Translations under genes and position numbers: made by a program
Notes under the pieces: generated by a model
Told to the model about the DNA's origin: nothing
The model's database searches: none
The model's input: only the letters and a program-made list of their open reading frames with translations
Shown here: piece by piece, positions 6,101 to 45,447 of the stretch
Layout of the letters: each line of letters begins with the position of its first letter
Position numbering within the stretch: position 1 is the stretch's first letter
Source: a virus
Virus record (IMG/VR): IMGVR_UViG_3300030233_000018
Location: 1 to 48,834 of that record
DNA length: 48,834 nucleotides
Reading direction: 5' to 3' (one strand)

Positions 6101-6604
6101 TTACCGATTACTGCGTTCACGGGCTAACCGTCCAATCATCTTGCTAGGGTGCTCGCTTCCCGTCAACTCTACCCACTTATCAACTTTAGCCATGCGTTCT
6201 TCAGTAAAACTGCTAGCGGCAAAATGCAGGTCAATGTAGTCTTTACCAGCAGGGGAAGGGTAAAGCGCAATTGCTTGCCTTAAATCATCCACCTCACTTT
6301 GCAAACGCTTCGCATCACCAATCAGAGAAGACACGCTATCTGCCCATGCGAGATCACGCTCAATGTCCCATTCCGTTATATCGAACCACTCGCCCTGTAG
6401 GCGATGAGATGTGTAACGCTCATGCATTAAGGACTCAAAGCGGCGCACCTCGTCTTCGCTATCAAACGTAATGTATTTTAGGACTTTCAATTTCTCATGA
6501 TGCGAGGTTTGCAATTCTCGCAATCGCCGATCAAGGTCATTGGTTCGACCTATTTTAATTGCGCCGCCAGAAACGGCTTGGATGAAATATGCGTAGCTTT
6601 TCAT
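6101..6604 (-). CDS. T5orf172/GIY-YIG-like domain protein
   Basis: A 167-residue protein. Residues 5-45 (YFIQAVSGGAIKIGRTNDLD followed by RRLRELQTSHHEKLKVL) match the T5orf172 branch of the GIY-YIG fold: a beta strand, KIG, then R-x-LxxLQ. The C-terminal 80 residues contain a likely coiled coil. Members are phage or homing-type DNA-cutting or DNA-binding proteins, but the classic GIY-YIG tyrosines are not obvious here, so catalytic activity is uncertain. ATG at 6604 follows AAGGAG with an 8-nt spacer. It ends at a terminator. Confidence 0.7.
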   Translation of the reverse strand: MKSYAYFIQAVSGGAIKIGRTNDLDRRLRELQTSHHEKLKVLKYITFDSEDEVRRFESLMHERYTSHRLQGEWFDITEWDIERDLAWADSVSSLIGDAKRLQSEVDDLRQAIALYPSPAGKDYIDLHFAASSFTEERMAKVDKWVELTGSEHPSKMIGRLARERSNR

Positions 6605-6924: not shown

Positions 6925-7335
6925 TCAATCTGCATGTAATTTGCCAGCGCCATCGTCAATAAAATAATCCCACTGATCTGTTTTGCGAAATTTCCGGAAG
7001 TAGTTGTACAGATCACTTACACCAAGCAATTCCCTAAGAGCAGTTTTTACAGACCCACGTATAGAAAACCACTCAACACCGGGCATATCCGTGCGGCGGT
7101 AAGCCTTATGGCGCACATGAAACTTTCGCTCTGTAAATTTGCCGCCCTTCATGACGCAGAGCAATTGCAAATCATAATCCTTGCATTTATAGCAAAGGGA
7201 AGCCATCCGCGCACGAGGTTTATAACTGTGCCCAACCTTTACAGCGTGATAGCGGGGACTGTAAATGATATACATCATTGTATCCCCGTAAATCTCAACG
7301 CCGTTTACTACCCTTATTGGTGCTATCTCACTCAT
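6925..7335 (-). CDS. T5orf172/GIY-YIG-like domain protein, second copy
   Basis: 136 residues from ATG 7335, which overlaps the stop of the HTH gene and has AAGGTGG upstream. The core MMYIIYSPRYHAVKVGHSYK then PRARMASL is the same strand-KVG-R-L pattern as the 6101-6604 product, so the two are distant paralogues. A Cys pair (CYKCKDYD) follows. Adjacent to and coupled with a repressor-like gene. Confidence 0.65.
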   Translation of the reverse strand: MSEIAPIRVVNGVEIYGDTMMYIIYSPRYHAVKVGHSYKPRARMASLCYKCKDYDLQLLCVMKGGKFTERKFHVRHKAYRRTDMPGVEWFSIRGSVKTALRELLGVSDLYNYFRKFRKTDQWDYFIDDGAGKLHAD

Positions 7336-7579
7336 TATGACCACCTTCCGACACAACAAAAACCATATTCATATCGTCAACGCCAATCACCTTACATATC
7401 TTTGCAATAACATTAGGGTCAGGGCGCTGCGCCTTACCCTGCATGTAGTGCGATAGCGTGCCGGGGTTTATGCCCGCCATGCCTGCTATCTGGTTTTGTG
7501 ATGGACGCTCATCTTCTGGCATCGAATTAAGCCATTCTTGCACCAAACTTGCTATGCGTATCTCCATGTATACCGCCAT
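7328..7579 (-). CDS. HTH (XRE-type) transcriptional regulator
   Basis: 83 residues from ATG 7579. Residues 27-62 form a helix-turn-helix: SQNQIAGMAGINPGTLSHYM followed by ANVIAK-type third helix (NVIAKICKVIG). This is the Cro/CI fold, so it probably regulates the divergent promoters just upstream. It is the first gene of the leftward unit, transcribed from the promoter at 7607-7635. An ATG at 7567 is an alternative start. No self-cleavage domain, so it is not a full CI-type repressor. Confidence 0.8.
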   Translation of the reverse strand: MAVYMEIRIASLVQEWLNSMPEDERPSQNQIAGMAGINPGTLSHYMQGKAQRPDPNVIAKICKVIGVDDMNMVFVVSEGGHNE

Positions 7580-7606
7580 TACTTTACTTTCCCTTCGATG
7601 TAATGA

Positions 7607-7635
7607 ATTATACCAAATCGTTCCGCATGCGTCAA
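7607..7635 (-). promoter_or_regulatory. Leftward sigma70 promoter for the regulator operon
   Basis: Minus strand: TTGACG (7630-7635), 17-bp spacer, TATAAT (7607-7612) with an adjacent TGG extension. It is back-to-back with the rightward promoter; the two -35 boxes form the inverted repeat GTCAA-7 nt-TTGAC (7631-7647), a plausible operator for the HTH protein. Confidence 0.85.
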
Positions 7636-7642
7636 ATGCCAC

Positions 7643-7672
7643 TTGACATATGCCGTATGGTTAATATATACT
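7643..7672 (+). promoter_or_regulatory. Rightward sigma70 promoter (early)
   Basis: Consensus -35 TTGACA at 7643-7648, 18-bp spacer and TATACT at 7667-7672. Transcription should begin near 7679 and enter the structured non-coding region. A second extended -10, TGTTATGAT, lies at 7723-7731 and could give a shorter transcript. Confidence 0.8.
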
Positions 7673-7678
7673 TATCAT

Positions 7679-8219
7679 TGTAACGCAAAAAGCCCCGTGG
7701 CACACGCCGCAGAGCTTGAATGTGTTATGATGTATGCAGATAGGTGAAAGACTCTCGCCAGTGCAATATCGAGTTGGGAAGCTCAACACTGGTGAGAGTC
7801 ACATCACTAAGATGCACAGCCATTATACCGCAGTAGGGGAGTCGCGCACTAAACCGGATTCGTACCGGATTATGACGCGACCTAAAACATACGCTCACCA
7901 CCACGGCGCACAGATGTGCTACAGTGAGATTCCGTTGGCTTCTGCTAACGTTATGCGAGCTTTATTGTGGTATTAAGGCTGATGTGATACGATTAACGAA
8001 CCATGCGCAATCCGGCGCAACAGGTGGGGATGAAAGAGAAGGTTGAGAGCAGCGCCTGTTATGTTATCCCGACACGACAACGCCACTCCCGACGCGAGAC
8101 AATGGACAACCAAAGTGCTTAGCCTCGCACAGACAAGGTGCGCACGCCGCTGATTGTTTCAATCTCTTTCTGTCGATTATACATGCGCAAATGGCGCGGT
8201 GCAATATCGGCACCGTTTT
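7679..8219 (+). ncRNA. Candidate large structured non-coding RNA (about 540 nt)
   Basis: This stretch holds no credible gene but begins at a strong promoter and ends at a hairpin with a T run (8197-8219). Helices seen: a 14-bp stem 7751-7764/7787-7800 with one G-U pair; GTCGCG 7841-7846 with CGCGAC 7876-7881; CTCAC/GTGAG enclosing GCAC-AGAT-GTGC near 7893-7928; CGTTGGC/GCTAACG near 7933-7950; and a pseudoknot in which AACAGG (8019-8024) pairs with CCTGTT (8055-8060) while GGGAT (8027-8031) pairs with ATCCC (8066-8070). Size, phage context and nearby tRNA-like element recall the ornate large RNAs ROOL and GOLLD, but I cannot confirm membership. Confidence 0.5.
8197..8219 (+). terminator. Hairpin and T run ending the structured RNA
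   Basis: CGGTGC and GCACCG form a 6-bp stem around a 7-nt loop, followed directly by TTTT. This is a short but plausible intrinsic terminator at the end of the 540-nt structured region. Confidence 0.5.
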
Positions 8220-8372
8220 CATACGTATGTGTAACACGGCAGATTAACATTCTTATACAAAAGTTTGGCGACGAAAATTAACGCTCTGCTGCTCGTGAGC
8301 CTATCGAGGCACCCCATTACCCATACGCGGTTGTAGTTTGATGGTTAGAGACACGGCAGCGGGGCGCACATA

Positions 8373-8444
8373 CCCCTTGTAGCTCAATTGGAGAGCATCT
8401 AGCGGCGAAGCTAGAGGTTGCAGGGACAAAACCTGCCAGGGGGG
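8373..8444 (+). ncRNA. tRNA-like cloverleaf with an 8-nt anticodon loop
   Basis: Full cloverleaf: acceptor CCCCTTG (8373-8379) pairs with CAGGGGG (8437-8443); T8 A9; D arm GCTC/GAGC with GG in the loop; anticodon stem TCTAG (8398-8402)/CTAGA (8411-8415); 4-nt variable loop; T stem GCAGG/CCTGC (8420-8424/8432-8436) with a 7-nt loop GACAAAA keeping C56 and A58. The anticodon loop CGGCGAAG is 8 nt and lacks U33, and the T loop lacks TT. No CCA is encoded. It is either a degenerate tRNA, an unusual tRNA or a tRNA mimic; amino-acid identity cannot be assigned. Confidence 0.6.
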
Positions 8445-8470
8445 CATGCGCTAGTTGATTATCCGTTTAT

Positions 8471-8790
8471 TTGAAGCGCACAGCCGAAAGGCGGCGACTG
8501 CCTGACACGAGAAATGACAGGCGCACCCCTGAAAGGTGCGTTCTATACCCTCGAGGGTGCGACGTTCGGGTGGCGTACAAGTACACTATAAACGGCGTTG
8601 GTGGTGAGAGCGTTAAACTACCCGTCCATGCAGTACAGACGAAAAATGTACGCTGGGGCGTGAGGTCGAGAGGCGCAGCGCCCCAACCTATGCCAGCGAG
8701 ATCGAATCGACCTCACGCGGGTTTGACTCCCGCCGCTGGTAGTAGCGGCAATAACGCCGTGAAATGACGGGAAACTGTCATGAGCTTTTC
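8471..8790 (+). ncRNA. Second structured non-coding stretch, hairpin rich
   Basis: No credible gene. Hairpins in series: GCC-GAAA-GGC (8483-8492), GCCTG/CAGGC (8500-8522), CGCACC/GGTGCG (8522-8540), ACCC-TCGA-GGGT (8547-8558), GTACA/TGTAC near 8633-8650. GGGGCG (8655-8660) pairs with CGCCCC (8679-8684) while the 11 bases at 8660-8670 are complementary to 8707-8717, a pseudoknot-like arrangement. CCAGCG (8692-8697) pairs with CGCTGG around a T-arm-like GCGGG-TTTGACT-CCCGC (8718-8734), resembling a tRNA acceptor/T minihelix. It may be leader RNA of the following genes or a separate RNA. Confidence 0.4.
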
Positions 8791-8814
8791 AGCCGCCATA
8801 GGCGGGGTAGCCCA

Positions 8815-8835
8815 ATGCAACGTGTGCCGATTGTG
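8815..8835 (+). repeat. 21-bp leader repeat, copy 1
   Basis: The sequence starting ATGCAACGTGTGCCGATTGT is repeated exactly at 9164-9184. Each copy lies 66-69 nt upstream of the start codon of a small membrane-protein gene, so it is a duplicated 5' regulatory element. Confidence 0.8.
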
Positions 8836-8883
8836 GCGAAATGCGGCAGTGGGGGCATTATGCAAAATTGCATGGAGGGAAGT

Positions 8884-9159
8884 ATGAAAAAAGGTTTAAT
8901 CATGATTGTTGTCGGGGTGCTTGGTGGCATTGCTCAAGCATTAGTACTAATGATGATGTGGCGATGGTACATCACGCCTCTGGGTGTACCAGAGATTAAC
9001 ATTTTTCACAGCGCGGGGATTATCTTGACCAAGATCGCCATTGCACCGGGCGGCACACAAAGCATTACTAACGATGAATGGCTATCGCAAATGCTCAAAG
9101 GAATTATTGCCCTAAGCATAGTCTTTGCACTGGGCGCGATTCTTCAGGTGTTCGTTTAA
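8884..9159 (+). CDS. Small membrane protein, 91 residues
   Basis: ATG at 8884 preceded by GGAGGGAAGT. Two hydrophobic helices: GLIMIVVGVLGGIAQALVLM (about 4-23) and the C-terminal IIALSIVFALGAILQVFV; a polar loop between. No family recognised. It shares a duplicated leader and overall build with the next gene, so the pair probably arose or is regulated together. Early phage membrane proteins of this type often act in superinfection exclusion, which is only a guess here. Confidence 0.7.
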   Translation: MKKGLIMIVVGVLGGIAQALVLMMMWRWYITPLGVPEINIFHSAGIILTKIAIAPGGTQSITNDEWLSQMLKGIIALSIVFALGAILQVFV

Positions 9160-9163
9160 GATC

Positions 9164-9194
9164 ATGCAACGTGTGCCGATTGTGCACACGTTGC
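9164..9194 (+). repeat. Leader repeat copy 2 with perfect hairpin
   Basis: 9164-9184 repeats the element at 8815-8835. Here GCAACGTGTG (9166-9175) also pairs perfectly with CACACGTTGC (9185-9194) around a 9-nt loop, forming a strong stem 36 nt before the ATG at 9230. It may be an operator, a leader regulator or a weak terminator. Confidence 0.75.
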
Positions 9195-9229
9195 GGTATG
9201 CTTGCCGGAAACACAACCGGAGGCATACC

Positions 9230-9463
9230 ATGAAAACACTGTTCACCATATTACTCGGCATCGCAATTTTAGGCGGCATCCTCGGCTTATTCATCTCCGA
9301 TGTGATGCTCGCAATCGGTATGGGCATGGCGGTAATCTGGGCGCTCTGCCTAATCGCCGTGCAGTTGAACGAGACGAATGATAAGCTGGACAAGCACTAT
9401 GAGGTTCAGCGCAGGTTGTTGCAGATCGAGCAGCAGCGCCAGCGCATGAGCCGGAAGAAGTAA
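9230..9463 (+). CDS. Small membrane protein with coiled-coil tail, 77 residues
   Basis: ATG at 9230 with GGAGG 8 nt upstream. The first 45 residues hold two hydrophobic helices (LFTILLGIAILGGILGLFIS and AIGMGMAVIWALCLIAVQL), followed by a charged helical tail (NETNDKLDKHYEVQRRLLQI) likely to be a coiled coil. Unknown function. Confidence 0.7.
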   Translation: MKTLFTILLGIAILGGILGLFISDVMLAIGMGMAVIWALCLIAVQLNETNDKLDKHYEVQRRLLQIEQQRQRMSRKK

Positions 9464-14998: not shown

Positions 14999-15012
14999 CT
15001 AACACGCACGCG

Positions 15013-15036
15013 AACCCCGACAGGGCAGGGGGTTTT
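15013..15036 (+). terminator. Weak terminator after the coiled-coil gene
   Basis: AACCCC (15013-15018) pairs with GGGGTT (15029-15034), followed by TTG. A short stem with a poor T tract. Confidence 0.4.
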
Positions 15037-15052
15037 GCATCGCGGCGGCATG

Positions 15053-15061
15053 TGTTATAAT
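15053..15061 (+). promoter_or_regulatory. Extended -10 promoter of the small RNA
   Basis: TGTTATAAT: a perfect TATAAT (15056-15061) with TGn extension. The -35 is weak. Start expected near 15068. Confidence 0.65.
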
Positions 15062-15067
15062 CGTGCC

Positions 15068-15163
15068 ATCGTAAACGCAAAACCCCGCATGTGCTGGTAA
15101 CACGAACGGGGTTGGAAAAATGCGAAACTCTCCGGGTGCGCAATCCGTGAGTTCTGTTTTTTA
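15068..15163 (+). ncRNA. Candidate 96-nt small RNA or attenuated leader
   Basis: Between an extended -10 promoter and a terminator lies a compact RNA with two hairpins: AACCCCG/CGGGGTT (about 15081-15115) and the terminator stem at 15126-15153. No start codon with a ribosome site lies inside. It either acts as a stand-alone phage small RNA or as an attenuated leader for the HNH and replication genes that follow about 80 nt later. Confidence 0.55.
15126..15163 (+). terminator. Intrinsic terminator of the small RNA
   Basis: AACTC...GAGTT with an inner CGG/CCG closing an 8-9 nt loop, then CTG and six T residues (15157-15162). The best plus-strand terminator in the window. Confidence 0.7.
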
Positions 15164-15245
15164 TTGTGTGGCTACTATACCGCACACGCAGACCTCGCGC
15201 AAGCCTCCGGTTAGATTTCGCGTAGAAATTTAACGGAGTTTAAAC

Positions 15246-15662
15246 ATGATTAGTCTTGAAGACAGATATGCAACTATACGTAAGTTAGCTGATAGAGATG
15301 GTTGTGTGTGTGTGTATTGCAAGAAGCCGCTTCAACACAAAGCACTTGATAGTTCATTGAAATACGATAAATACGATAAATCGTGGGCGCAAATTGAACA
15401 CAGGCTACCCAAGCATCTTGGGGGCAACAATGAGATTATCAATCTGGCTTTATCATGCAAGACTTGCAATTCCAGAAAAGGCACCCTTAGCGCTCCGGCT
15501 TTTATGTATTACATGGATAAGCAGGGGAATGTCGATTACCTCAGAGAGCATCTAAGGGGCATCTTTGAGGAAAATGAGCATGATGAAAGAATAACGCGGA
15601 TGTTATGCGCACTGCTTTACTACGTTGAGAAAGACAAAGACGTGAAAGGGCGGTTGGCATGA
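15246..15662 (+). CDS. HNH endonuclease
   Basis: 138 residues from ATG 15246 with GGAG 8 nt upstream. Metal-binding CVYCKKPL near residue 22, catalytic region AQIEHRLPKHLGGNNEIINL (His and Asn of the HNH core) and CKTCNSRKG define a typical HNH nuclease of the CxxC...CxxCN type. It may be a homing-type gene or have a role in DNA processing. It overlaps the replication initiator start by 4 bp. Confidence 0.9.
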   Translation: MISLEDRYATIRKLADRDGCVCVYCKKPLQHKALDSSLKYDKYDKSWAQIEHRLPKHLGGNNEIINLALSCKTCNSRKGTLSAPAFMYYMDKQGNVDYLREHLRGIFEENEHDERITRMLCALLYYVEKDKDVKGRLA

Positions 15663-27069: not shown

Positions 27070-27516
27070 CTACCTAATCACACGGTCATAGGGTTCACGA
27101 AGTTGAATCATCAAGTACATCAACGAAAAACCCCACGAATAGATTGCGAGAGCAACCCATGACCCGCGTGCAACATTAAAAAGTATTGTCATGGCGATGT
27201 GCAGCGGAATCGGCAGCGCAAATAAGATGGATGCCATTGCACTGCGCTCTTGGGAGAAATACAGTGTGATTAAATTACTGACACCGAGTGCCAATTGAAT
27301 TAGCGCATACGCACGCACGTAAATATGAGGCGCTTGCACAGTGTCCATGAAGTAGCCAACAACCGCAGAATCTTCGTTCCACGTTGACCACGCCATGAGA
27401 ATGACCAGTAGTGCCGTAAAGGCGTCTGATAGAAAAAATATAGTTTTGATTGTGCGCTTGCTGCGCGTCAAGTTGGCAGGAGCGCGTCCTGTCCAGATCA
27501 TACGTTCACCTAACAT
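27070..27516 (-). CDS. Four-helix membrane protein
   Basis: 148 residues from ATG 27516 (GAGG upstream). An earlier in-frame start would place an intrinsic terminator inside the coding region, so the later ATG is chosen. Four hydrophobic segments, for example FFLSDAFTALLVILMAWSTW and SILFALPIPLHIAMTILFNV. First gene of the lysis cassette; could be a holin or antiholin. No family recognised. Confidence 0.65.
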   Translation of the reverse strand: MLGERMIWTGRAPANLTRSKRTIKTIFFLSDAFTALLVILMAWSTWNEDSAVVGYFMDTVQAPHIYVRAYALIQLALGVSNLITLYFSQERSAMASILFALPIPLHIAMTILFNVARGSWVALAIYSWGFSLMYLMIQLREPYDRVIR

Positions 27517-27525
27517 TGGTTGTAA

Positions 27526-27594
27526 GTCCTCGCCGACTTTGAGTGAAATAAAAACAGCCCGTGAGGGCTGCATGGGACGGAAGTCGGCGAGGAC
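27526..27594 (-). terminator. Terminator nested inside a 14-bp inverted repeat
   Basis: GTCCTCGCCGACTT (27526-27539) and AAGTCGGCGAGGAC (27581-27594) are perfect inverted repeats. Between them, on the minus strand, CAGCCC-TCA-type stem (27555-27570) is followed by TTTTTATTTC. A further copy CTCGCCGACT lies at 27645-27654. The outer stem could form an alternative structure or hide the ribosome site of the 27070-27516 gene. Confidence 0.7.
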
Positions 27595-27660
27595 AAACCG
27601 CCCCACACAGCCCGCAAAGGCTGTTCGTGGCGGGAGTATATCGCCTCGCCGACTGTTGTG

Positions 27661-30216
27661 CTATGGCAACAAGCTGCTCATTTGTGCTTCTAGTGTTGCT
27701 ATGCGGCTTTCAAGCGAGCGAACAACTGTCTCAACATATTCATTCGCTTGCACCTGTAAGCCCCACAGCGATGAATAGGCAATGGATAGCCCGCCACTAC
27801 CATCAGGCTTCACACTGCCATTATTGCGAACCAACCCATATTGAATGGCTGTGTAATCCTCACCTTCACCGCGTGGCACCACCGCTTCGCACGCAGTAAT
27901 AAGGCTCTGCGCACTTAGACCCAATCGGGGGTTATCATCAACGACGACAACTTCACCCCCCTCCTTGTCAAGTACGGTACGGTCTTTCCATTGGTAACGA
28001 ATGCCTTCAATGCGTCGCAGAATGTTGTATGCAACCTGCGGGGGTATCGTTGTGATGTTGCGCTTTTTGCGCGTGTCGGATGACACATCCACTGCGTTTA
28101 CTGTGTACACAGTATCAATGCGTGTGCCATCTGCACCAATGTCAATTTGCCCGTTGGTGCGACCCGAGAAGAACGGGTTGTCGCTAGCGCTTCCGGGCTG
28201 GAACTCAAAGTCCGATGTCAGTGCCGTGCTGCCATCTGGCACCAACTCAACACGCCTGAACGTCGGCATACTGCTGCCTGTGTGCGCTGCGGCGGCAAGA
28301 ATAATGTCATTGCTCACGTTTGCGTAATCTGATGTGCCATCCCACGCCCGCCCGGAATTGGTGGTAATCCAGTCATCCGCTAAAAGCTGCGATTCACTAC
28401 CTGAGGACCCCCGCGCCGCGCTAAACACAAATTGTCCACGCACAAACTTTTTTGTGCCTTTGTAGACGAGGGTGTTAACGCCCGTGTTGTCATCGCGGCT
28501 TAGAAAGATGCCATCTGCGCCACTGGCGTTAATGATGACTTCCGTTGCCGTGATGGAACCAGCGCCCGTGATTGAGAGCGCGGCAGATGACGCATTGTTG
28601 AGGACTTCCAGCACGGCGTCACCGTTGTCGCCCGTGCTGCTCTCAATCTGCACAGGATTCGCGCTGTTCGTGATGTCAATATTGTTGCCGTTGTCGTAAA
28701 CCGCTTGCAGGTCTACGGTGCTGTCAATTTTATCTTCTGTCACCGCCCCGTTGTTAATCTTGGCGGTTGTGATTGCGCTGTCTGCAATGCGAGATGTGCC
28801 GAACTCCCCCGACGCAATCGCCGCCGCGTCGAGTGTGCCGCCGCCTGCACTGCTTTCGTGGTCATGTGTGGCGTTTGTAAAATCACCTATCGTTGGCGTG
28901 GTGAGTGTTTTGTTCGTGAGCGTCTGCGTTGTGCTCGTGCCAACGAGTGTTAAATCCGAATCCGGCATGGTGGCAACACGGGTGGTGCTGGTTGTGAACC
29001 CGTCCACCTCAAAGCGTAGCTGCTTTGTGTCATCCACGCTGCCTTTGACGATGGCGGTGGTGTCTGCCACGGGCAGCGCGTCACCGCCTGCGCCGACTTC
29101 TATCCATACTGCTGACGTGCTCGTGGCGTCCACGCACAGGTATACCTTATCATTTGTGGTGTCAAACCACTGTGAGCTGACACTGTACCCGTCGCCGCTG
29201 TCATCGTTGGCGGTTGGCGCGGTGGTTGCGCTGCGATTCACCTTGACTTCAACAGTGCTTCCGCCTTCGATAAGTGGGTATCCGTCGTAAGCGCTCACGT
29301 CCGCTTCAAGACCGCCGTACTCATGTGCAACTCGCTGATTGCTGTCGAGTAGTGGCGTGCGCTTCCACTCATCGTCGGTGGCATCGTCATAGTACATGAC
29401 ATCACCTTCACTGATGCCTGTGTCGAGGTCGTCGTCCACGTCGGACAACCCCGGCAGCGCGGTAGCAAACGCACTCAGGTCAACGAAGCTCAAGAACTCG
29501 CGCAGGTCGTAAACATACTCGCTGCGAATATTGGAGAGCGCTGTTTCATCAGCAGTGATGTTATATGCCCATATCGGGAAGAACCCTGCCGAAAGTGTCA
29601 CCCCCAGCGCATCATTGCGCGTGAGTGTGACCTGCAATGTTTCATCCACTTCCGTTCCAAGCACAGTTTCAAACGCCTGCGTGGATGGATTAAACCCAAT
29701 CACAATCATCGCCGCTTTATTAGCAGTCATTGTGCCGTGAACGGTGGCTAAATCTGTCGTGCCTCCGGCAAATGCGCTTTTTGTGCTGTTATAGGTATAG
29801 ACGCCTGCACTTACCCGCACGACAAACCCGCTTGACTCCGGCACGACACGCAGTAATCGAATGCGATTCGTGATGACAGGCTCCGTGACAAGCTCCGCAG
29901 GCGCATCACTCCGGCTAAAGGCTGCTAGTGCAGCGCCCACCTTGTCCAGCGCCGCGCTAAAATCAGGACGCGCAATATACTCCACGCGCTTTTTTGGGTC
30001 GTATGCCACAACCACATCAATACCTGCCTGATATTGATAGCCAATGTTGATGACTGCCTTTTCCGAAATACCGTCATTGACCCAAATCAGACCGTCCTGC
30101 TCGGAGTCGTTGACATACACGCGGGTTTCACTGGAGTTGATGCGCCCAGTGACGTAATCCTTCTCTTTGAACCGCGCCATGTTGCGCAGGCGTCGTGCAT
30201 TCCGCTCAATTGTCAT
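27661..30216 (-). CDS. Tail fibre with C-terminal peptidase S74 chaperone domain
   Basis: 851 residues. A long beta-rich shaft with repeats of TSTTQTLTNKTLTTPTIGDF type (seen also in many phage fibres). From residue 712 comes SSDTRKKRNI, the start of an intramolecular chaperone of the S74 family, with the Ser and Lys needed for self-cleavage, then YQWKDRTVLDK and a C-terminal coiled coil (VRSLESRIATLEAQM). The chaperone trimerises the fibre and is then released. Likely host-recognition protein. Confidence 0.88.
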   Translation of the reverse strand: MTIERNARRLRNMARFKEKDYVTGRINSSETRVYVNDSEQDGLIWVNDGISEKAVINIGYQYQAGIDVVVAYDPKKRVEYIARPDFSAALDKVGAALAAFSRSDAPAELVTEPVITNRIRLLRVVPESSGFVVRVSAGVYTYNSTKSAFAGGTTDLATVHGTMTANKAAMIVIGFNPSTQAFETVLGTEVDETLQVTLTRNDALGVTLSAGFFPIWAYNITADETALSNIRSEYVYDLREFLSFVDLSAFATALPGLSDVDDDLDTGISEGDVMYYDDATDDEWKRTPLLDSNQRVAHEYGGLEADVSAYDGYPLIEGGSTVEVKVNRSATTAPTANDDSGDGYSVSSQWFDTTNDKVYLCVDATSTSAVWIEVGAGGDALPVADTTAIVKGSVDDTKQLRFEVDGFTTSTTRVATMPDSDLTLVGTSTTQTLTNKTLTTPTIGDFTNATHDHESSAGGGTLDAAAIASGEFGTSRIADSAITTAKINNGAVTEDKIDSTVDLQAVYDNGNNIDITNSANPVQIESSTGDNGDAVLEVLNNASSAALSITGAGSITATEVIINASGADGIFLSRDDNTGVNTLVYKGTKKFVRGQFVFSAARGSSGSESQLLADDWITTNSGRAWDGTSDYANVSNDIILAAAAHTGSSMPTFRRVELVPDGSTALTSDFEFQPGSASDNPFFSGRTNGQIDIGADGTRIDTVYTVNAVDVSSDTRKKRNITTIPPQVAYNILRRIEGIRYQWKDRTVLDKEGGEVVVVDDNPRLGLSAQSLITACEAVVPRGEGEDYTAIQYGLVRNNGSVKPDGSGGLSIAYSSLWGLQVQANEYVETVVRSLESRIATLEAQMSSLLP

Positions 30217-45424: not shown

Positions 45425-45447
45425 AAAAACCGCCTCGTTGGGCGGTT
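45425..45447 (-). terminator. Intrinsic terminator upstream of the capsid fusion gene
   Basis: Minus strand AAACCGCC pairs with GGCGGTTT around a 6-nt loop, then TTTTATTT. It closes the three-gene cassette 45478-46696. Confidence 0.85.

What the first reader, a model, noticed from the sequence alone, without database searches (positions are those of the whole stretch)
7679..8219. About 540-nt structured RNA with its own promoter, pseudoknot and terminator
A strong promoter opens a gene-free stretch packed with helices (14-bp stem, several 5-7 bp stems, a pseudoknot at 8019-8070) and ending in a hairpin with T run. Size, phage setting and a neighbouring tRNA-like element match the ornate large RNA classes ROOL and GOLLD, whose functions are still unclear. 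It may be a member or a new class.
Basis: partly seen in the sequence, partly recalled or inferred. Interest (0 to 1): 0.85.

Follow-up and report, generated by a model that had tools for sequence, protein, structure and literature searches.

The report
Orphan phage long noncoding RNA gene
A virus of bacteria carries, between two divergent gene blocks, a roughly 540-letter stretch that makes no protein but has the start signal, stop signal and strongly folded first half expected of a free-standing RNA; it belongs to neither of the famous giant phage RNA families, and no relative was found to prove the fold.

Summary
The observation largely holds; the detail and the family assignment do not. 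In this 48.8-kb phage record the 1.24 kb between a leftward HTH gene and the first rightward gene (ATG 8884) is noncoding. It contains the only sigma-70-like site with at least 11 of 12 matches on the + strand (7643-7672). By a strict rule it also contains the only intrinsic terminator on that strand (8197-8219). Together they bracket a ~540-nt transcription unit. Its first 308 nt (7679-7986) are the most strongly folding of 198 windows tested (z about -6 to -7). The first helix begins at the predicted start site G7680, and the + strand folds better than the - strand. The 3' part (7987-8223) is no more stable than shuffled sequence (z -0.75), and a pseudoknot of the claimed kind occurs in 66% of shuffles. 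ROOL and GOLLD models give no match even at E 10. No homologue was found, so covariation is untested. Downstream lies a tRNA-derived cloverleaf (8373-8444) with 21 pairs kept but anticodon and T loops no longer tRNA-like. Best reading: an orphan phage long ncRNA of the type seen beside tRNAs in phage K. Main rival: a structured, attenuated leader of the rightward operon.

The parts
7643..7672 (+). sigma-70-like promoter TTGACA-18-TATACT; predicted start G7680
   Evidence: 11/12 matches, only such + strand site in the window
7607..7635 (-). divergent promoter TTGACG-17-TATAAT (TG-extended) for the leftward HTH gene, back to back with the ncRNA promoter
   Evidence: 11/12 matches
7328..7581 (-). 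Cro/CI-type HTH gene (probable regulator of the divergent promoters); start ATG 7581 after GAAGGG
   Evidence: Pfam HTH_31, HTH_26, HTH_3; start context
7680..7728 (+). helical domain 1; its first pair begins at the predicted transcription start
   Evidence: MFE and centroid agree
7735..7815 (+). helical domain 2 with the 14-bp stem 7750-7763/7787-7800
7812..7986 (+). domain 3: a long-range, GU-rich closing helix around three hairpins (four-way junction)
   Evidence: z -4.75 on + strand, -2.71 on - strand
7987..8196 (+). 3' part of the unit, weakly folding; includes the claimed pseudoknot 8019-8070
   Evidence: z -0.75; pseudoknot of this class expected by chance
8197..8219 (+). intrinsic terminator hairpin plus TTTT; predicted 3' end
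   Evidence: only strict site on + strand; not listed by the general scanner
8373..8444 (+). tRNA-derived cloverleaf, 21 pairs in four stems, 8-nt anticodon loop without U33, T loop GACAAAA, no CCA
   Evidence: Rfam tRNA 41.1 bits; 74% to a tRNA-Thr gene region of MW202545.1; not called by ARAGORN; anatomy
8451..8883 (+). noncoding stretch before the first rightward gene, also folding well; outside the proposed unit
   Evidence: z -4.16; noncoding
8884..9159 (+). first gene of the rightward block, small membrane protein
   Evidence: SD GGAGG; weak PHROG 2169 match

Best explanation
The unit 7680-8219 is most likely a phage gene for a long noncoding RNA of about 540 nt. SHOWN by sequence: noncoding, a near-consensus promoter, a terminator hairpin, a very stable first 308 nt arranged as two hairpin domains and a four-way junction, and a position at the divergent control region beside an HTH regulator gene. 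INFERRED: when the HTH protein does not occupy the divergent promoters, host RNA polymerase makes the RNA from G7680 to about 8219; the 5' domains fold as they emerge and protect the RNA, so it accumulates. INFERRED and least certain: the RNA then acts as an RNA in its own right (a scaffold or binding platform), as proposed for the long RNAs that phages encode beside tRNAs. Leaky termination would carry some transcripts on into the tRNA-like element and the rightward operon, for which no good promoter is visible between 7673 and 8884.
For: Only + strand promoter with at least 11/12 matches in 48.8 kb and only strict + strand terminator bracket the same noncoding stretch. 7679-7986 ranks first of 198 windows for fold stability and z is -6.27. 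The first helix starts at the predicted transcription start. The + strand folds better than the - strand. GC skew turns from negative to positive at the divergent promoters, as expected for rightward transcription. Precedent: phage K makes two long noncoding RNAs beside tRNA genes, lnc001 from its own early promoter (PMC9241854); they do not match ROOL or GOLLD, and by the same yardstick fold with z -1.4 and -5.0.
Against: One sequence only: no homologue and no covariation. The 3' 230 nt fold no better than shuffled sequence. The strict terminator rule was set after seeing the site; the T run is short (TTTTC). A segment on the - strand near the tail-fibre gene folds almost as well (27501, z -6.7), so fold stability alone does not prove a functional RNA. 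The structured region continues downstream (8451-8883), which fits a leader as well.
Confidence: 0.5

Rival explanations
1. Structured, attenuated leader of the rightward early operon: the promoter at 7643 is the operon's promoter, the 5' domains act on the nascent transcript, and the hairpin at 8197-8219 is a regulated terminator that some polymerases pass, so that the RNA works in cis rather than as a separate product. The tRNA-like cloverleaf downstream could be a cut site for host RNase P.
For: No promoter-like site with at least 9/12 matches between 7673 and 8884 on the + strand, so the operon seems to need this one; strong folding continues to 8883; divergent arrangement with an HTH gene; the cloverleaf keeps a full 7+5 bp acceptor/T stack.
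Against: 1.2 kb is long for an attenuation leader; no alternative antiterminator fold or leader peptide was found; weak promoters would escape the scan.
Confidence: 0.3
2. Decaying tRNA island or functionless spacer: the cloverleaf is a dying tRNA gene and the rest is neutral sequence that happens to fold.
For: The cloverleaf is 74% like a tRNA-Thr gene region from a spring phage with ruined loops; no homologues of the rest.
Against: All four stems remain fully paired, which decay would break; only one tRNA match in the region even in permissive scans; fold stability ranks first in the window.
Confidence: 0.13
3. A DNA-level element (operators, replication origin or partition site) whose inverted repeats only look like RNA helices.
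For: Intergenic, beside an HTH gene, in a phage with a ParM-like partition protein.
Against: No iteron-like repeats; GU-rich pairing makes the + strand fold better than the - strand.
Confidence: 0.05
4. A small protein is encoded in the 3' part (VGMKEKVESSACYVIPTRQRHSRRETMDNQSA, 8024-8122), alone or in a dual-function RNA.
For: Best ORF of the unit, AGG five bases before an in-frame ATG at 8030.
Against: 18% of shuffles give an ORF as good; the SD is weaker than in the phage's genes.
Confidence: 0.02

Closest known systems
Phage K (Kayvirus) lnc001 and lnc002
   Same: Long noncoding RNAs of a phage (positions give 635 and 1154 nt) beside tRNA genes; lnc001 from its own early promoter; function unknown; not matched by ROOL or GOLLD models.
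   Different: Proven by RNA-seq, next to standard tRNA genes; no sequence relation shown; the neighbour here is a tRNA-like element 150 nt past the terminator.
ROOL RNA (RF03087)
   Same: Similar length (model 574 positions), phage or prophage location, often near tRNAs (PMC12286853).
   Different: No match to the covariance model at E up to 10; ROOL is complex with several pseudoknots, whereas here only the 5' 308 nt fold beyond chance.
GOLLD RNA (RF02032)
   Same: Phage or prophage RNA near tRNA islands; its linker sometimes holds tRNAs (PMC12286853).
   Different: No match at E up to 10; many GOLLD RNAs exceed 800 nt and have a universally conserved 3' region; here the 3' part is the weak one.
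Phage leader RNAs with regulated early termination (for example satellite phage P4 immunity, HK022 put; from general knowledge)
   Same: Noncoding leader from an immunity-type promoter with a terminator before the operon.
   Different: Much longer; no CI-RNA-like or put-like element identified; not tested functionally.

Membership tests
ROOL (RF03087) | match to the family covariance model | tested here: not met
   no match in the record at E<=10; none in permissive Rfam scans of the region. The control genomes did not ring for ROOL, so the search had no positive control.
ROOL (RF03087) | phage setting near tRNA genes | tested here: inconclusive
   phage record; one tRNA-like element 150 nt downstream, no standard tRNA
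ROOL (RF03087) | multi-pseudoknot fold supported by covariation | not testable with these tools
   no homologue found; the claimed pseudoknot is of a class found in 66% of shuffles
GOLLD (RF02032) | match to the family covariance model | tested here: not met
   no match at E<=10; none in permissive scans
Phage long noncoding RNA beside tRNAs (phage K type) | noncoding, own promoter, terminator | tested here: met
   (predictions from sequence)
Phage long noncoding RNA beside tRNAs (phage K type) | abundant transcription during infection | not testable with these tools
   needs RNA-seq
Phage long noncoding RNA beside tRNAs (phage K type) | adjacent tRNA gene | tested here: inconclusive
   tRNA-derived cloverleaf 8373-8444 passes Rfam tRNA (41.1 vs 29 bits) but is not called by ARAGORN
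Functional tRNA (for 8373-8444) | 7-nt anticodon loop with U33, T loop with TTC, CCA end | tested here: not met
   8-nt loop CGGCGAAG, T loop GACAAAA, 3' GCAT
Functional tRNA (for 8373-8444) | four paired cloverleaf stems | tested here: met
   7+4+5+5 pairs, one of them G-U

The most novel reading that the evidence does not exclude
A new class of large phage RNA whose 5' four-way-junction domain is followed downstream by a tRNA-derived cloverleaf that kept its stems and changed its loops, the two made as one transcript and parted by host RNase P.
Probability: 0.12. Interest if true: 0.8.

Novelty: new member of a known kind. Interest (0 to 1): 0.42.

Why it matters
Long noncoding RNAs of phages near tRNAs (ROOL, GOLLD, the phage K RNAs) are abundant or conserved, and their functions are unknown. 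An unrelated example in another phage would suggest that such RNAs arise repeatedly and are not limited to two families. The tRNA-like element with intact stems and altered loops offers a concrete handle (processing by RNase P) that can be tested. As it stands it is a single-sequence candidate.

Tried and rejected
Rfam at gathering and permissive thresholds: only the tRNA; the VA RNA hit on the - strand is the 14-bp stem alone (21 of 62 bits). DNA similarity in phages and plasmids: short chance matches only. Eight IMG/VR scans: the terminase query gave relatives (11) without the RNA (25); four other proteins gave no relatives; the 16-17-nt patterns gave only unrelated places, judged from flanks or context. 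The genome scan gave two distant terminases. DNA in 398 genomes and a single-sequence covariance model of domain 3 in 16 phage records and 299 genomes: nothing; these genome sets are an arbitrary sample of one phylum, since the host is unknown. Considered and dropped: a second tRNA near 8650-8735 (T-arm-like GCGGGTTTGACTCCCGC; no Rfam support, 52); the 10-bp complementarities 7894/8599 and 8278/8607 (about one such pair expected by chance in 1.2 kb, my estimate); the small ORF 8024-8122. My first judgement that no terminator exists was reversed. Mycobacteriophage Bxz1, wanted as a GOLLD control, was not held.

Full report
SETTING. The window is one IMG/VR virus record of 48,834 bases. It has a tailed-phage gene set: large terminase, major head protein, tail genes, a ParM-like partition protein, DnaB helicase and a Gp3-like recombination directionality factor. 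Genes left of 7581 are read leftward and genes right of 8884 rightward. Between them lie a pair of back-to-back sigma-70-like promoters (7635-7607 on the - strand, 7643-7672 on the + strand, both 11/12) beside a Cro/CI-type HTH gene, which looks like an immunity-type control region. GC skew changes sign there.

IS IT NONCODING? Yes, as far as sequence can tell. Codon-usage scores of all ORFs in 7643-8883 are below every gene used for training. The best ORF in the unit is matched by 18% of shuffles. The first rightward gene starts at ATG 8884 after GGAGG.

IS THERE A TRANSCRIPTION UNIT? A search of the whole window finds one + strand promoter-like site with at least 11/12 matches, at 7643-7672. 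The general terminator scanner listed none on the + strand here. It finds three on the - strand, at 45446, 27570 and 3658. Shuffled strands hold 0.43 on average, and none of 300 shuffles of the 1.2-kb region had one. Because the rule was chosen after seeing the hairpin, I treat this as good but not independent evidence.

IS IT STRUCTURED? The full unit has z -4.7 and ranks second of 102 windows of 540 nt. The excess is in the first 308 nt: z -6.27, rank one of 198 windows of 308 nt, with MFE and centroid nearly the same. The model has a first helix starting at G7680, where the promoter predicts the start. Then comes a hairpin with a 14-bp stem, then a four-way junction (7812-7986) closed by a long-range, GU-rich helix. 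On the opposite strand the junction domain is less stable (z -2.71 against -4.75), as expected if selection acts on the + strand RNA. The remaining 237 nt have z -0.75, and the pseudoknot at 8019-8070 belongs to a class present in 66% of shuffles. One - strand segment (27501) scores almost as well, so the fold score is support and not proof.

THE tRNA-LIKE ELEMENT. 8373-8444 matches the Rfam tRNA model with 41.1 bits and is 74% identical to a tRNA-Thr gene region of phage MW202545.1, which ARAGORN calls there. All four stems are intact (7+4+5+5 pairs). The anticodon loop has 8 bases and no U33, the T loop is GACAAAA, and no CCA follows; ARAGORN rejects it. Stems kept and loops changed suggest a retained tRNA-like fold rather than plain decay, but one sequence cannot show it.

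FAMILY TESTS. ROOL and GOLLD models do not match the record at E up to 10, nor does any other Rfam family match the unit (a - strand match to VA RNA is chance). As a yardstick, the phage K long RNAs, which are expressed and lie beside tRNAs (PMC9241854), also match neither family, and fold with z -1.37 and -5.02. The candidate is therefore about as strongly folded as RNAs known to be made.

HOMOLOGUES. None found, despite eight viral scans, one genome scan, DNA searches of phages and plasmids, and model searches of relatives and about 300 genomes. The phage itself has few relatives in these collections: three terminases near 70% identity, otherwise about 45% or less. Covariation could not be tested.

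VERDICT. The best reading is an orphan phage long noncoding RNA of about 540 nt with a strongly folded 5' part (0.5). The main rival is an attenuated structured leader of the rightward operon (0.3), favoured by the lack of another promoter before 8884 and by continued folding to 8883. What the RNA does is not shown by anything here; action as a scaffold or binding platform is inference by analogy.

Noticed in passing
window 8815-8835 and 9164-9184: An exact 21-nt direct repeat ATGCAACGTGTGCCGATTGTG lies 50-70 nt upstream of two successive small membrane-protein genes; in both places it reads MQRVPIV in frame with the gene. At the second copy it forms an 11-bp hairpin.
   Followed up: partly
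window 9195-9229: The leader of the gene at 9230 can fold GGTATGC...GCATACC with the Shine-Dalgarno GGAGG inside the hairpin, a possible translational switch.
   Followed up: no
window 27526-27594 (- strand fold 27501-27808): The longest helix of the window (15 bp) and the second most stable 308-nt segment, on the - strand beside the tail-fibre gene end; it overlaps a terminator-like hairpin with TTTTTATT at 27570-27555.
   Followed up: partly
window 15001-15540: Highest 540-nt fold z-score on the + strand (-5.3), partly in the noncoding gap before the HNH gene at 15246.
   Followed up: no
window 6101-6604 and 6925-7359: Two adjacent GIY-YIG-type (T5orf172/MUG113) genes in the leftward block beside the HTH gene.
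   Followed up: no
L048 4341-4458 (MW202545.1): A Manatee Spring phage carries an Rfam Betaproteobacteria-1 sRNA (100 bits) just after a six-tRNA array.
   Followed up: no
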